DNA from: Peribacillus sp. FSL P2-0133
Lineage (GTDB): Bacteria > Bacillota > Bacilli > Bacillales > DSM-1321
Length of the DNA: 64,000 nucleotides
Assembly: GCF_037975445.1 (NCBI RefSeq)
Contig: NZ_CP150254.1
Coordinates: forward strand, 1,486,001-1,550,000
Reading direction: 5' to 3'
The notes beneath the pieces were generated by a model that had not been told where the DNA came from, searched no databases, and worked only from the letters and a program-made list of their open reading frames with translations. The first letter of the stretch is position 1. The number at the start of each line of letters is the position of its first letter. Both the position numbers and the translations under genes were made by a program. Shown here piece after piece: positions 15,582 through 26,522 of the stretch.

Positions 15582-15611
15582 TTGAAAAAATCTGAATATT
15601 ATGTATATACT
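15582..15611 (+). promoter_or_regulatory. predicted SigA promoter of the acyl-CoA cluster
   Basis: TTGAAA (15582-15587), an 18-base spacer, TATACT (15606-15611). The expected start of transcription lies at the edge of the adjacent palindrome. Confidence 0.6.
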
Positions 15612-15626
15612 TTAAGAGTAATAACA

Positions 15627-15642
15627 TACTAACCGGTTAGTA
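15627..15642 (+). promoter_or_regulatory. predicted TetR operator 1
   Basis: A perfect 16-base palindrome TACTAACCGGTTAGTA placed 15 bases after the -10. It nearly matches a second copy at 19959-19974 beside the TetR gene, as expected for the autoregulated repressor of this cluster. Confidence 0.75.
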
Positions 15643-15664
15643 AGTTTAAAAGGAGGAATTCAAT

Positions 15665-16894
15665 TTGAACTTTGAACATACTCAAAAGGTGAAAGATCTG
15701 GAAAAGAAGTTAACGGAATTCATGGAAAAGCACGTTTACCCAAATGAATCAATATACAAGAAGCAGCTTGAAGCACAGAAGAGCCGCTGGAGTGAAATAC
15801 CCCCGATTTTATCTGAATTGACGGCAAAAGCAAAAGAAGAAGGATTATGGAATTTATTTTTACCTGATAGCGGTTATGGCGCGGGTTTAACAAATCTAGA
15901 ATATGCCCCGCTTTGTGAAATCATGGGTAGGTCGTCGATAGGGCCTGAAATCTTCAACTGTAATGCGCCGGACACTGGTAATATGGAAGTGTTGGTGAGA
16001 TACGGTTCAGATGAACATAAGGAACTCTGGCTGAAGCCCTTGCTTGCTGGGGAAATTCGCTCATGTTTCTCGATGACAGAACCGGAAGTGGCGTCTTCCG
16101 ATGCGACCAATATCGAATGCAGGATAGAAAAGACGGGTAATGAGTATGTCATAAACGGCCGAAAATGGTGGTCTTCAGGCGCAGGTGATCCCCGATGCAA
16201 GATTGCCATCGTCATGGGTAAGACGGATCCTGAGGCGTCCAAGCATGAACAACAGTCAATGATTCTTGTACCGCTGGATACACCGGGTGTCAAAATCGAG
16301 AGAATGCTCCCTGTGTTTGGTTATGATCATGCCCCGCATGGCCATGCCGAAATCACTTTTGAAAATGTGAGGGTCCCGGCAACGAATATTCTATGGGGGG
16401 AAGGCAAAGGATTTGCGATTGCCCAAGGAAGACTCGGACCCGGAAGGATACATCATTGCATGAGGCTGATCGGCGCTGCTGAAAGAGCTCTTGAAGAATT
16501 ATGTAAGCGCATTCAAAACCGTGTCGCTTTTGGTAAAACATTGGCGAGACAAGGTGTGATCATGGAGTGGGTTGCTGATTCACGCATTGAAATCGAACAA
16601 GCAAGACTTCTGACCTTAAAAGCTGCTTATATGATGGATACTGTCGGGAACAAGGAAGCGAAGGCGGAGATTGCCATGATAAAAGTGGTGGCACCAAATA
16701 TGGCATTGAATGTGCTGGACAGGGCCATCCAAGGCTTTGGAGCTGCAGGGATTTCCGATGATTTCCCTTTTGCTGCACATTGGGCAAATGCACGGACTTT
16801 AAGGCTTGCTGATGGTCCCGATGAAGTTCACCGCTCACAAGTTGCTAAGATAGAACTTCGAAAATACCAGCAAAAGCATGAGGTGAAAATATGA
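15665..16894 (+). CDS. ACAD10/11-type acyl-CoA dehydrogenase
   Basis: A 409-residue FAD-dependent acyl-CoA dehydrogenase. Typical blocks are CFSMTEPEVASSDATNIECR and GRKWWSSGAG in the middle domain, and RVAFGKTL, GFGAAGISDDFPFA and LRLADGPDEVHRSQ at the C-terminus. The last blocks are those of the ACAD10/ACAD11/LvaC subgroup, whose members process 4-phospho-acyl-CoA made by a linked APH-like kinase. Here that kinase is a separate gene at 22102. TTG start with AAAGGAGG 7 bases upstream. It overlaps the next gene by ATGA. Promoter and palindrome lie just before it, so it is the first gene of the unit. Confidence 0.88.
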   Translation: MNFEHTQKVKDLEKKLTEFMEKHVYPNESIYKKQLEAQKSRWSEIPPILSELTAKAKEEGLWNLFLPDSGYGAGLTNLEYAPLCEIMGRSSIGPEIFNCNAPDTGNMEVLVRYGSDEHKELWLKPLLAGEIRSCFSMTEPEVASSDATNIECRIEKTGNEYVINGRKWWSSGAGDPRCKIAIVMGKTDPEASKHEQQSMILVPLDTPGVKIERMLPVFGYDHAPHGHAEITFENVRVPATNILWGEGKGFAIAQGRLGPGRIHHCMRLIGAAERALEELCKRIQNRVAFGKTLARQGVIMEWVADSRIEIEQARLLTLKAAYMMDTVGNKEAKAEIAMIKVVAPNMALNVLDRAIQGFGAAGISDDFPFAAHWANARTLRLADGPDEVHRSQVAKIELRKYQQKHEVKI

Positions 16895-24731: not shown

Positions 24732-24748
24732 AAAAAGGGGATGGGTAA

Positions 24749-25528
24749 ATGTTAAAAGAACACTTATTGACAGAGGTAACCGATAATGTAATGATCCTGA
24801 CTTTGAATCGTCCTGAAAGCTTGAATGCATTTAGCCCGGATATGATTGCAAGCTTAACGAAAGCGATTAAGGATGTAAAACAAACACCACATATAAGGGC
24901 AGTCATTATCAAAGGGGCGGGAAGATCATTCACTGCGGGAGGTGACGTTAAGTCAATGGGGAAGGCCTCTGCAAGTCAATTGTATGATCATGTTGGCAGA
25001 ATGAATGAATGCATATTGGCTCTGGATGCTTCTGAGGTTCCCGTAATCGCTGCCGTCCATGGATTTGCGGCAGGGGCCGGATTTAATTTGGCACTCGCCT
25101 GTGATTTGATCGTGGCTTCCGATGATAGTCAATTTGCCATGAGTTTTTCACAGGTAGGCCTGATCTCTGATGGAGGTGGTTCGTATTTTTTACCTAAATT
25201 AGTAGGGCCCCACCTTGCAAAGCAGCTCTTCTTTACTGCCGAGCCAATTTCTGCGGAACGCTTATACCAGTTAGGTGTCATTAATTATATATATCCACTC
25301 AATCAACTTGAAGAGGAATCATTGAAACTTGCGGAAAAGCTGGCAAATGGACCGACAAAAGCTTATGGGATGATGAAAAAGCTCGTTAGCCATTCATTTA
25401 CGGCTACACTTGATGAAATGCTCGAACAGGAACGTATCACGCAAACCTTGATGGCCTCCACAGAAGATCATCTGGAGGGAGTTGCAGCATTCAAAGAAAA
25501 AAGAAAACCGGAATTTACAGGGAATTAA
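24749..25528 (+). CDS. crotonase-family isomerase, PaaG/ECI-like
   Basis: A 259-residue crotonase with oxyanion-hole AGGDVKSMG and GAGFNLALACD. The first catalytic Glu of true hydratases is Gly here, and the second position is Asp in GLISDGGGS. This Asp-only arrangement is that of PaaG and enoyl-CoA delta isomerases, which shift double bonds. So I call it an isomerase rather than a hydratase. It follows SDR 2 by 17 bases with an AAAAGGGGATGGG leader. Confidence 0.85.
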   Translation: MLKEHLLTEVTDNVMILTLNRPESLNAFSPDMIASLTKAIKDVKQTPHIRAVIIKGAGRSFTAGGDVKSMGKASASQLYDHVGRMNECILALDASEVPVIAAVHGFAAGAGFNLALACDLIVASDDSQFAMSFSQVGLISDGGGSYFLPKLVGPHLAKQLFFTAEPISAERLYQLGVINYIYPLNQLEEESLKLAEKLANGPTKAYGMMKKLVSHSFTATLDEMLEQERITQTLMASTEDHLEGVAAFKEKRKPEFTGN

Positions 25529-25544
25529 TAAGGGAGGGATAAAG

Positions 25545-26522
25545 ATGAGAGCCATTCATTTTGAAGAATACGGCGGACCGGAAGTACTGAAATTGACAGA
25601 AATGGAAAGGCCCGTGCCAACTGGGCATGAAGTTCTGATTGAAATCGATTGTGTCGGCGTCAATTATGCAGATACAGCGAGAAGGGAAGGGCAATATGTG
25701 GTACCTACGCCGCTTCCGTTCATTCCAGGTGCGGAAGTGGCTGGCGTTGTGGTGGAAGTTGGTGGAAAGGTGACCAAAATCAAACCCGGTACAAGGGTAG
25801 TGAGTTTAATTGAATCGGGTGGATATTCAGAATATGCCCTTTCAGATGAATTCTCGGCCATTCCGCTTCCTGATGCCATACAGTTTCATGAAGCTGTTGC
25901 CCTGCCACTTCAAGGTCTGAGCGCCTATCATATTCTAAAGACAATGGGACGCATGCAACAGGGGGAAACGGTATTGGTCCATGCTGCTGCAGGTGGAGTG
26001 GGAACGATTGCCGTACAATTAGCCAAAATCTTCGGGGCTGGAAAAGTGATTGCTACCGCCAGCACAGTGGAAAAGTTGGAACTGGCTAAATCGATGGGGG
26101 CAGATGAACTTATCGATTACACGAAAGAAGGATGGGAAATGAAAGTCCGTGAGGTCACGTCCGGAAAGGGAGTAGACGTGGCGCTGGAAATGGCAGGAGG
26201 GGATGTTTTCAATAAAACTTTGAAATGTTTGGCTCCATTTGGACGTCTCGTGGTTTTTGGTAATGCCAGTCGTAAGCCTTATACGATGAACCCGCAGCAA
26301 TTAATGAGGCGCAATCAATCCGTCGTAGGTTTTTTCCTGCCACAGATCATGAAACACCCAGATTTGCTGTTGCCTAGCATTCAAGATCTTTTTTCTTACG
26401 TCACGTCCGGGGAACTTAAGCTAACTATCGGCGGCATCTACCCAATTGAAAAGGCAGCAGCCGTTCATGAGGAAATGAATGCCCGTCAAACGAAAGGGAA
26501 GTTGATTTTGCAGGTAAAATGA
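25545..26522 (+). CDS. zinc-independent quinone oxidoreductase/medium-chain reductase
   Basis: A 325-residue MDR protein. GroES-like N-domain, then NADPH-binding HAAAGGVGTIAVQLA and an EMAGGDV segment, no structural zinc cysteines. Resembles NADPH:quinone oxidoreductases and enoyl reductases (2-enoyl/crotonyl). It could reduce an enoyl or quinone intermediate of the cluster, but no substrate is evident. ATG at 25545 after GGGAGGG; it is the last gene of the unit and a hairpin follows. Confidence 0.85.
   Translation: MRAIHFEEYGGPEVLKLTEMERPVPTGHEVLIEIDCVGVNYADTARREGQYVVPTPLPFIPGAEVAGVVVEVGGKVTKIKPGTRVVSLIESGGYSEYALSDEFSAIPLPDAIQFHEAVALPLQGLSAYHILKTMGRMQQGETVLVHAAAGGVGTIAVQLAKIFGAGKVIATASTVEKLELAKSMGADELIDYTKEGWEMKVREVTSGKGVDVALEMAGGDVFNKTLKCLAPFGRLVVFGNASRKPYTMNPQQLMRRNQSVVGFFLPQIMKHPDLLLPSIQDLFSYVTSGELKLTIGGIYPIEKAAAVHEEMNARQTKGKLILQVK

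What the first reader, a model, noticed from the sequence alone, without database searches (positions are those of the whole stretch)
15582..26522. Candidate Gram-positive 4-hydroxy/4-oxo-acid catabolic cluster (Lva-like)
Seen: in one co-directional block, an ACAD10/11-type dehydrogenase, SDRs, acyl-CoA ligase, an APH-type phosphotransferase with intact H212/D214/N219/D234, plus a hydratase, an isomerase, a hydroxyacyl-CoA dehydrogenase and a TetR repressor. Established: in the Pseudomonas levulinate pathway LvaA (kinase) phosphorylates 4-hydroxyacyl-CoA, LvaC (ACAD) removes phosphate to give an enoyl-CoA, LvaD is an SDR and LvaE an acyl-CoA ligase; mammalian ACAD10/11 fuse the first two activities. 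Inference: this block assembles all four roles beside beta-oxidation enzymes. No LvaB-like small protein was recognised.
Basis: partly seen in the sequence, partly recalled or inferred. Interest (0 to 1): 0.75.

Follow-up and report, generated by a model that had tools for sequence, protein, structure and literature searches.

The report
Fatty-acid kinase partnered by altered phosphatase
A soil Bacillus relative carries a 12-gene cluster that likely breaks down 4-hydroxy or 4-oxo fatty acids the way mammalian ACAD10/11 and Pseudomonas do, and in most of its relatives that have the kinase gene it is paired with a gene for an altered phosphatase-family protein that is predicted to hold the phosphorylated intermediate in check.

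Summary
In detail: twelve co-directional genes (15665-26522) encode an ACAD11-type dehydrogenase, two SDRs, an acyl-CoA ligase, a TetR regulator and an APH-type kinase beside beta-oxidation enzymes. The dehydrogenase matches ACAD11 at 479 bits (SCAD: 149) and has the family's Asp at the catalytic-base position. The kinase groups with the ACAD11 kinase domain, apart from six of seven other APH proteins of the genome. A 4-hydroxy/4-oxo-acid route is therefore likely; substrate and activity are untested, and LvaA was never in hand.

In 199 genomes of the order, 83 of 84 with this gene also have the kinase, and 69 of 89 copies lie directly downstream of it. It belongs to a clade lacking an Arg of canonical ComB, and the genome has no ComA. 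Elsewhere the same kinase type often has a histidine phosphatase beside it, with Ser for its second catalytic His in 11 of 12 loci; mammalian ACAD10 has a degenerate HAD domain. One Pseudomonas case with a histidine phosphatase is in print; the ComB-type pairing and three-way recurrence were not seen in the papers searched.

The parts
15628..15641 (.). palindrome ACTAACCGGTTAGT, predicted TetR operator upstream of the ACAD gene
   Evidence: a site with <=3 mismatches within 250 bp upstream of the ACAD in 60 of 80 loci
15665..16894 (+). ACAD11-type acyl-CoA dehydrogenase, 409 aa, TTG start; Asp383 at the catalytic-base position
16891..17664 (+). short-chain dehydrogenase SDR1 (candidate 4-oxoacyl-CoA reductase, LvaD role; inferred)
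   Evidence: a relative at >=40% identity in 65 of 80 loci
17681..19312 (+). long-chain-type acyl-CoA ligase (LvaE role; inferred)
19385..19948 (+). TetR-family regulator (TetR_C_24; FadR-like at 63.8 bits, cut-off 200)
19960..19973 (.). second palindrome ACTAACCAGTTAGT, upstream of the gene block that holds the kinase
19992..20876 (+). 3-hydroxyacyl-CoA dehydrogenase
20873..21655 (+). enoyl-CoA hydratase
21671..22072 (+). 4HBT-type acyl-CoA thioesterase
22102..23163 (+). APH-type kinase, predicted 4-hydroxyacyl-CoA kinase; Asp214 aligns with the ACAD11 Asp that reads Ala in 8v3u
23168..23926 (+). ComB-type (PF04029) partner protein with Leu35 in place of the canonical Arg; predicted to limit the phosphorylated intermediate
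23946..24731 (+). short-chain dehydrogenase SDR2
24749..25528 (+). enoyl-CoA hydratase/isomerase (PaaG-like)
25539..26522 (+). quinone oxidoreductase (PIG3-like) of the zinc-alcohol-dehydrogenase superfamily
26527..26551 (+). terminator-like stem-loop (11 pairs) after the last gene
   Evidence: 6 terminator-like sites in the region, 10.2 expected in shuffles, so weak on its own

Best explanation
This is a Gram-positive ACAD11-type cluster that likely feeds 4-hydroxy and 4-oxo fatty acids into beta-oxidation, with a ComB-family protein encoded directly after the kinase that is predicted to restrain or undo the kinase step. Proposed order: the ligase makes the CoA ester; an SDR reduces a 4-oxoacyl-CoA; the kinase phosphorylates the 4-hydroxyl; the ACAD11-type dehydrogenase expels phosphate to give a 2-enoyl-CoA; hydratase and 3-hydroxyacyl-CoA dehydrogenase carry it on. 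The ComB-type protein would dephosphorylate 4-phosphoacyl-CoA or the 4-phospho acid that strays from the route (or sense it and hold the kinase back), protecting the CoA pool. The TetR protein would release two operators when an acyl-CoA builds up. Shown by sequence: family membership, catalytic residues, gene order, co-occurrence, conserved palindromes. Inferred: every reaction, the substrate, the partner's role.
For: ACAD matches ACAD11 chains at 463-479 bits against 149 for SCAD; its Asp383 aligns with the ACAD11 Asp that reads Asn in 8v3v, and with the Glu of SCAD. Kinase Asp214 aligns with the ACAD11 Asp that reads Ala in 8v3u. ACAD10/11 phosphorylate 4-hydroxyacyl-CoAs and eliminate phosphate (PMC12440821, PMC11342911: passages). 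Kinase tree. In 199 genomes: kinase 94, ComB-type 84, both 83; 69 of 89 ComB-type hits start within 200 bp after the kinase; 104 of 115 kinase hits have the ACAD within 20 kb. The one genome with the ComB-type gene and no kinase has an in-frame stop in it and no Glu-Asp motif. A histidine phosphatase gene found by one query in 47 plasmid-collection records has the kinase within 150 bp in 37 of them. ACAD10's HAD domain restrains its kinase (PMC11342911). Two palindromes stand before the two gene blocks.
Against: No activity is measured. The ComB-type gene was not found intact in 22 of 80 loci (one of them, L029, has it split) and not in 11 of 94 kinase-bearing genomes, so it is dispensable. 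It diverges faster than its neighbours: in the 68 loci whose kinase is under 75% identical, 40-59% identity where the ACAD keeps 74-84%. The co-occurrence counts are not corrected for shared ancestry or block transfer. In a sample of 249 genomes of the phylum PF04029 is in 138 but the kinase in 5, and three of those five have PF04029 far from the kinase. PMC11342911 found negligible phosphatase activity for ACAD10's HAD domain, which speaks for a regulatory over a catalytic role. No thiolase lies in the cluster. Seven of the annotated kinase loci looked at have no phosphatase beside the kinase.
Confidence: 0.68

Rival explanations
1. The ComB-type protein is a true 2-phosphosulfolactate phosphatase, as its annotation says, and only happens to lie in a lipid cluster.
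For: PF04029 match of 198 bits; sources name its homologues so; the presumed metal and phosphate residues D32, E77, TTNGT, N130, E161, D162 are kept.
Against: All eight NCBIfam models of the family that match score far under their cut-offs, e.g. 163.9 against 330. Position 35 is Arg in 0 of 85 distinct linked proteins but in 25 of 41 distinct unlinked ones. The genome has no ComA; 71 of 84 genomes with the cluster type lack ComA, and no cluster-type copy lies within 10 kb of ComA, whereas all eight members of another PF04029 class seen in these genomes lie 35-213 bp from ComA.
Confidence: 0.06
2. The cluster is an ordinary long-chain fatty-acid beta-oxidation cluster, and the kinase acts on something else.
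For: FadD-like ligase, TetR with weak FadR similarity, hydratases and 3-hydroxyacyl-CoA dehydrogenase.
Against: The ACAD is ACAD11-type with Asp instead of Glu, and ACAD10/11 showed no activity on the unsubstituted acyl-CoAs tested in PMC12440821, whose authors leave partial activity under other conditions open (passage). The ACAD lies within 20 kb of the kinase in 104 of 115 cases.
Confidence: 0.12
3. The ComB-type protein is catalytically idle and works purely as a binding partner of the kinase, as LvaB does for LvaA in P. putida, not as a phosphatase.
For: An Arg kept in two other PF04029 classes is lost and the following loop is remade; LvaB binds LvaA and is needed with it, and a histidine phosphatase gene but no lvaB lies in the P. 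citronellolis cluster (PMC6692424 passages); the HAD domain of ACAD10 restrains the kinase with negligible phosphatase activity.
Against: The residues presumed to form the metal site are invariant in all 85 distinct linked proteins, which an idle protein need not keep; copies on other contigs persist in four genomes that have the kinase elsewhere.
Confidence: 0.3

Closest known systems
Mammalian ACAD10 / ACAD11 (4-hydroxy acid catabolism; PMC12440821, PMC11342911, passages)
   Same: ACAD with the special Asp and an APH-type kinase with the same catalytic residues; ACAD10 also has a phosphatase-fold (HAD) domain next to the kinase
   Different: here kinase and ACAD are separate genes, the partner is a ComB-type protein, and SDR, ligase, TetR and beta-oxidation genes are clustered with them
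Pseudomonas putida KT2440 lva operon (LvaA-E; Rand 2017, seen only through passages of PMC6692424, PMC11342911 and PMC12440821)
   Same: separate kinase, ACAD, SDR and CoA ligase genes in one cluster
   Different: no DUF6285 match in this genome, ComB-type gene directly after the kinase, TetR instead of the sigma54-type LvaR; LvaA/LvaC sequences not compared
Pseudomonas citronellolis LA18 lva cluster (PMC6692424, passages)
   Same: a phosphatase-family gene by the lvaA-type kinase, no lvaB
   Different: the phosphatase there is of the histidine family; here ComB type
ComB, 2-phosphosulfolactate phosphatase (PF04029; PDB 1vr0)
   Same: same sequence family, presumed metal-site residues kept
   Different: Arg35 replaced by Leu, one-residue deletion and Pro89 in a later loop, no ComA in the genome, neighbour of a lipid kinase

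Membership tests
ACAD10/ACAD11-type acyl-CoA dehydrogenase | closer to ACAD11 than to other ACADs | tested here: met
   479 bits to 2wbi against 149 to SCAD
ACAD10/ACAD11-type acyl-CoA dehydrogenase | Asp at the catalytic-base position | tested here: met
   Asp383 aligns with the Asp that reads Asn in 8v3v and with SCAD Glu
ACAD10/ACAD11 | kinase and ACAD in one polypeptide | tested here: not met
   separate genes 15665-16894 and 22102-23163; so it may work like ACAD11 but is not an ACAD10/11 fusion
4-hydroxyacyl-CoA kinase (LvaA / ACAD10/11 kinase domain) | groups with the ACAD11 kinase, not with other APH enzymes | tested here: met
   36-row group 91/95; six of seven own-genome paralogues outside, L007 strays inside on a very long branch; five further APH matches of the genome were not put in
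4-hydroxyacyl-CoA kinase (LvaA / ACAD10/11 kinase domain) | direct similarity to LvaA | not tested
   no LvaA sequence could be obtained; Rand 2017 not held, no P. putida entry among the 120 listed proteins
P. putida lva operon | LvaB subunit | tested here: inconclusive
   no DUF6285 in the genome, but the LvaB-DUF6285 link is not established here
P. putida lva operon | growth on levulinate dependent on the genes | not testable with these tools
   bench experiment
ComB (2-phosphosulfolactate phosphatase) | PF04029 domain over its cut-off | tested here: met
   197.8 against 26.4 bits
ComB (2-phosphosulfolactate phosphatase) | over the NCBIfam equivalog cut-offs | tested here: not met
   best 163.9 against 330; eight of eight models under
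ComB (2-phosphosulfolactate phosphatase) | Arg of the D-x-x-R-A motif | tested here: not met
   Leu35; L 80, F 3, M 2 of 85 distinct linked proteins
ComB (2-phosphosulfolactate phosphatase) | ComA in the genome | tested here: not met
   G000 has no PF02679 match

The most novel reading that the evidence does not exclude
The 4-hydroxyacyl-CoA kinase has a 'partner slot' that evolution has filled at least three times with unrelated phosphatase folds whose canonical active sites are altered: a HAD domain with half its DxD motif in ACAD10, a histidine phosphatase with Ser for its second His in Proteobacteria, Actinomycetota and Deinococcus, and a ComB-type protein with Leu for Arg35 in Bacilli. 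Each partner reads or removes 4-phosphoacyl-CoA and sets the pace of the kinase, so that CoA is not trapped as a phosphorylated dead end.
Probability: 0.35. Interest if true: 0.78.

Novelty: new variant of a known kind. Interest (0 to 1): 0.6.

Why it matters
It would extend the recently found ACAD10/11 pathway to a large set of Gram-positive bacteria, correct a misleading annotation (87 of 110 PF04029 matches in the sampled genomes of the order are of the cluster type, yet such proteins are named 2-phosphosulfolactate phosphatase), and turn the puzzle of ACAD10's inactive-looking HAD domain into a general, testable question: why does a 4-hydroxyacyl-CoA kinase keep acquiring a phosphatase-like partner? 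Bacterial pairs of separate proteins should be easier to assay than the cleaved mammalian protein.

Tried and rejected
Rejected: that the ComB-type protein serves sulfolactate metabolism. Rejected, for the loci tested: another phosphatase in place of ComB in ComB-less Bacilli. Ten of the genes that follow the kinase there were searched in Pfam: two SDR, five ACAD, one zinc-type dehydrogenase, one ligase, one hydratase; the others in the list were judged by length and by the labels only, and those of L042 and L132 are unidentified. Tried without result: obtaining LvaA; a paper naming the active-site residues of ComB (20 of 121,458 matches listed); a paper pairing PF04029 proteins with this pathway. 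Not pursued: structure prediction, because no complex can be predicted and coordinates are not returned; chain-length specificity. The idea that the histidine phosphatase tracks ACADs of >=54% identity (7 loci) was kept only as a tendency: Azoarcus L188 has it with an ACAD of 33%, Sulfitobacter L189 with only part of an ACAD in the stretch, and Cytobacillus spongiae L180 (73%) has no phosphatase. The Ser for the second His is not a mark of kinase-side copies alone: six copies without a kinase nearby have it too.
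Full report
What is there. The window lies in a Peribacillus-like chromosome (contig C1, 1486001-1550000; the nearest loci are mostly named Peribacillus simplex/frigoritolerans or Bacillus sp.). Twelve + strand genes run from 15665 to 26522 with gaps of -4 to +72 bp. Pfam and NCBIfam give: ACAD, SDR1, acyl-CoA ligase, TetR, 3-hydroxyacyl-CoA dehydrogenase, enoyl-CoA hydratase, 4HBT thioesterase, APH kinase, PF04029 protein, SDR2, a PaaG-like hydratase/isomerase and a PIG3-like quinone oxidoreductase.

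Dehydrogenase. Against solved structures it scores 487 bits to 4hr3, 479 to ACAD11 (2wbi) and 463-465 to the two full-length ACAD11 entries, then drops to 149 for SCAD. In the alignments Asp383 of LRLADGPDEV meets the ACAD11 Asp that reads Asn in 8v3v and the Glu of SCAD. PMC12440821 (passages) describes a predicted catalytic Asp kept only in ACAD10/11 homologues and reports no activity of ACAD10/11 on the unsubstituted acyl-CoAs tested, leaving partial activity under other conditions open. That the Asn of 8v3v and the Ala of 8v3u are that paper's A* and K* mutations is my reading of the alignments and of its text.

Kinase. Best solved relatives are 9o56 (464 bits), 3dxp (138) and ACAD11 (129-132). 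Asp214 meets the ACAD11 residue that is Ala in 8v3u; H212, N219 and D234 are present. A 44-row tree holds the window kinase, Bacillaceae, Deinococcus and proteobacterial relatives, 3dxp and the mouse ACAD11 kinase in one group of 36 rows (91/95). The genome has 12 other APH matches, of which seven were put in: six fall outside; the seventh (L007, branch 8.3) strays inside, a long branch of the sort the program warns about. The kinases of Azoarcus L188 and Thermus L210, which are followed by DUF6285, also fall outside. Identity to the ACAD11 kinase is 30%. LvaA itself was not available, so membership with LvaA is untested.

The missed gene. The PF04029 protein starts 4 bp after the kinase. It is the only PF04029 protein of the genome. 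In 199 genomes sampled from the order (tally): ComB-type match at E<=1e-8 in 84, kinase at E<=1e-30 in 94, both in 83, only ComB-type in 1 (G125), only kinase in 11, neither in 104. These counts include G020, whose match is a weak, Arg-bearing type (L158), so strictly 82 of 83. Of 89 ComB-type hits, 69 start within 200 bp after the kinase on the same strand, 78 have the kinase within 20 kb, and 75 have the ACAD within 20 kb. In four genomes (G072, G181, G022, G100) it sits 79-136 bp from the ACAD instead. In four more (G062, G017, G032, G089) it is on another contig while kinase and ACAD are elsewhere in the genome. G366, in another family of the class, has it directly upstream of the kinase. 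In the 80 loci from named genomes it was found in 58 and directly downstream in 57; L029 has it split. In G125, the one genome without the kinase, the gene has an in-frame stop and no Glu-Asp motif, as if decaying once the kinase was lost. These counts are not corrected for common descent, and whole-block transfer or loss could produce part of the co-occurrence. As a control, in 249 genomes sampled from the phylum PF04029 occurs in 138 but the kinase in only 5; three of those five (one genus, G206, G253, G292) have their PF04029 gene about 0.9 Mb from the kinase, and the one examined (L163) is of the Arg type. So PF04029 as a whole is not tied to the kinase; this subfamily is.

A distinct subfamily. 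144 PF04029 frames were found in the loci then in hand; six were dropped by length (the fused frames of L084 and L105, and pieces in L029 and L124), leaving 138. Some genes were held twice; without duplicates there are 85 within 8 kb of kinase or ACAD and 41 not. Position 35 is L 80, F 3, M 2 in the 85, and R 25, S 12, L 4 in the 41; the four with L are those of G062, G017, G032 and G089, genomes that have the kinase. Pro89 is in 85 of 85, with a one-residue deletion in the loop that reads GFD-x-GNSP in canonical ComB. D32, E77, N130, E161 and D162 are invariant in the 85, as is TTNGT but for Ser in two. On a 58-row tree (17 linked, the four unlinked-L35, 15 canonical and 22 other rows) the 21 form one clade (99/95). 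PF04029 has 110 matches in the 199 genomes, 87 of them of the cluster type. ComA (PF02679) is in 30 genomes, not in this one; 13 of the 84 ComB-type genomes have it, no cluster-type copy lies within 10 kb of it, and all eight members of another PF04029 class (RAFT type) seen there lie 35-213 bp from it. The name 2-phosphosulfolactate phosphatase is therefore very likely wrong for the cluster type. What the lost Arg does in ComB was not found in a paper; that it belongs to the substrate pocket is inference.

The same slot elsewhere. In the plasmid collection (which also files some chromosomes) relatives of the kinase have a histidine phosphatase gene beside them. The Azospirillum phosphatase found 47 records; with kinase positions and annotated stretches, 37 have the kinase within 150 bp, two more within 1 kb (one with DUF6285 between), one (CP069002) only if its ends are joined, one (D. 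aetherius) at 23.6 kb, and six no kinase hit in the 5-6 kb fetched on either side. Where within 1 kb, the phosphatase is downstream in 23 and upstream in 16. Many records are close relatives (13 Deinococcus, 12 Sulfitobacter). Thermus L210 has kinase, DUF6285, histidine phosphatase. In 11 of 12 kinase-side loci examined the second catalytic His (HGG) reads SGG or SSG; Thermus keeps HGG; the six copies without a kinase nearby also have Ser. In the phosphoglycerate-mutase alignment that Ser falls on the His of AAHG, in a stretch that HMMER does not rate as significant. That this His is catalytic in the family is recalled. No phosphatase lies beside the kinase in Cupriavidus L183, Haladaptatus L184, Acinetobacter L185, Rhodococcus L187, Ruegeria L208, Sphingobium L209 or Cytobacillus spongiae L180, and most of the 287 plasmid records with a kinase relative were not examined for neighbours.

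What is in print. PMC6692424 (passages) reports for Pseudomonas citronellolis LA18 a histidine phosphatase gene adjacent to the lvaA homologue, no lvaB, and suggests that it may remove phosphate from 4-phosphovaleryl-CoA; it also relates that P. putida LvaB binds LvaA and that lvaA, lvaB and lvaC are needed for growth on levulinate. PMC11342911 (passages) reports that ACAD10's HAD domain has one Asp of DxD, negligible phosphatase activity on 4-phosphohydroxyhexanoyl-CoA, and restrains the kinase. So a phosphatase-like neighbour is known for one bacterium and for ACAD10; the ComB-type pairing, its conservation in Bacilli and the comparison of three families were not seen in the searches (listings, most capped at 20; most subscription journals are not held).

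Regulation. A palindrome ACTAACCGGTTAGT (15628-15641) lies upstream of the ACAD and ACTAACCAGTTAGT (19960-19973) upstream of the 3-hydroxyacyl-CoA dehydrogenase. With at most one mismatch the 16-base form occurs only at these two places in the genome; at two mismatches four further places match, while the control pattern (the same letters read backwards) has 46 matches, so the number of sites alone is no evidence; their places and conservation are. A site with at most three mismatches lies within 250 bp upstream of the ACAD in 60 of 80 loci, against a mean of 0.92 such sites anywhere in 25 letter-shuffled loci. That the TetR protein binds it is inferred; it would put kinase and ComB-type gene under the same control as the ACAD.

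Verdict. A Gram-positive ACAD11/Lva-type route is well supported by homology and untested by experiment. The new element is the kinase's phosphatase-family partner. I favour a clearing or restraining role over a step of the main route, because ACAD10/11 and LvaC are reported to remove the phosphate themselves and many relatives do without the partner.

Noticed in passing
L105:1489-3216 (also L084:11056-12783): The ComB-type protein is part of one 575-aa frame directly after the kinase; in L105 its C-terminal half is an alpha/beta hydrolase domain (PF07859). L084 has a frame of the same length and score, possibly the same genome.
   Followed up: partly
L029:10102-11821: In the Peribacillus frigoritolerans T7-IITJ assembly both the kinase and the ComB-type gene are split into overlapping frames, perhaps assembly errors.
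   Followed up: no
L124 (G125): A ComB-type gene with an in-frame stop and without the Glu-Asp motif, in the one ComB-type genome that has no kinase.
   Followed up: yes
L160:8784-11883: In G366 TRAP transporter genes (DctP and DctQ by Pfam; the gene between them not searched) stand between the ACAD side and the ComB-type gene, hinting at uptake of a small carboxylate.
   Followed up: no
window:16891-17664: SDR1 scores over the cut-off of NCBIfam 'gluconate 5-dehydrogenase' (401 against 279), a name that is probably misleading in this setting.
   Followed up: no
L210:5992-7962 and L188:3614-5678: Kinase, DUF6285 and histidine phosphatase follow each other in Thermus and Azoarcus; DUF6285 may be a further kinase partner.
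   Followed up: partly
window:27397-29253: Downstream on the - strand, a radical SAM protein (B12-binding type by its best matches) that reaches no NCBIfam cut-off among those listed.
   Followed up: no
window:14228-15559: A sensor histidine kinase gene ends about 100 bp before the ACAD gene, same strand.
   Followed up: no
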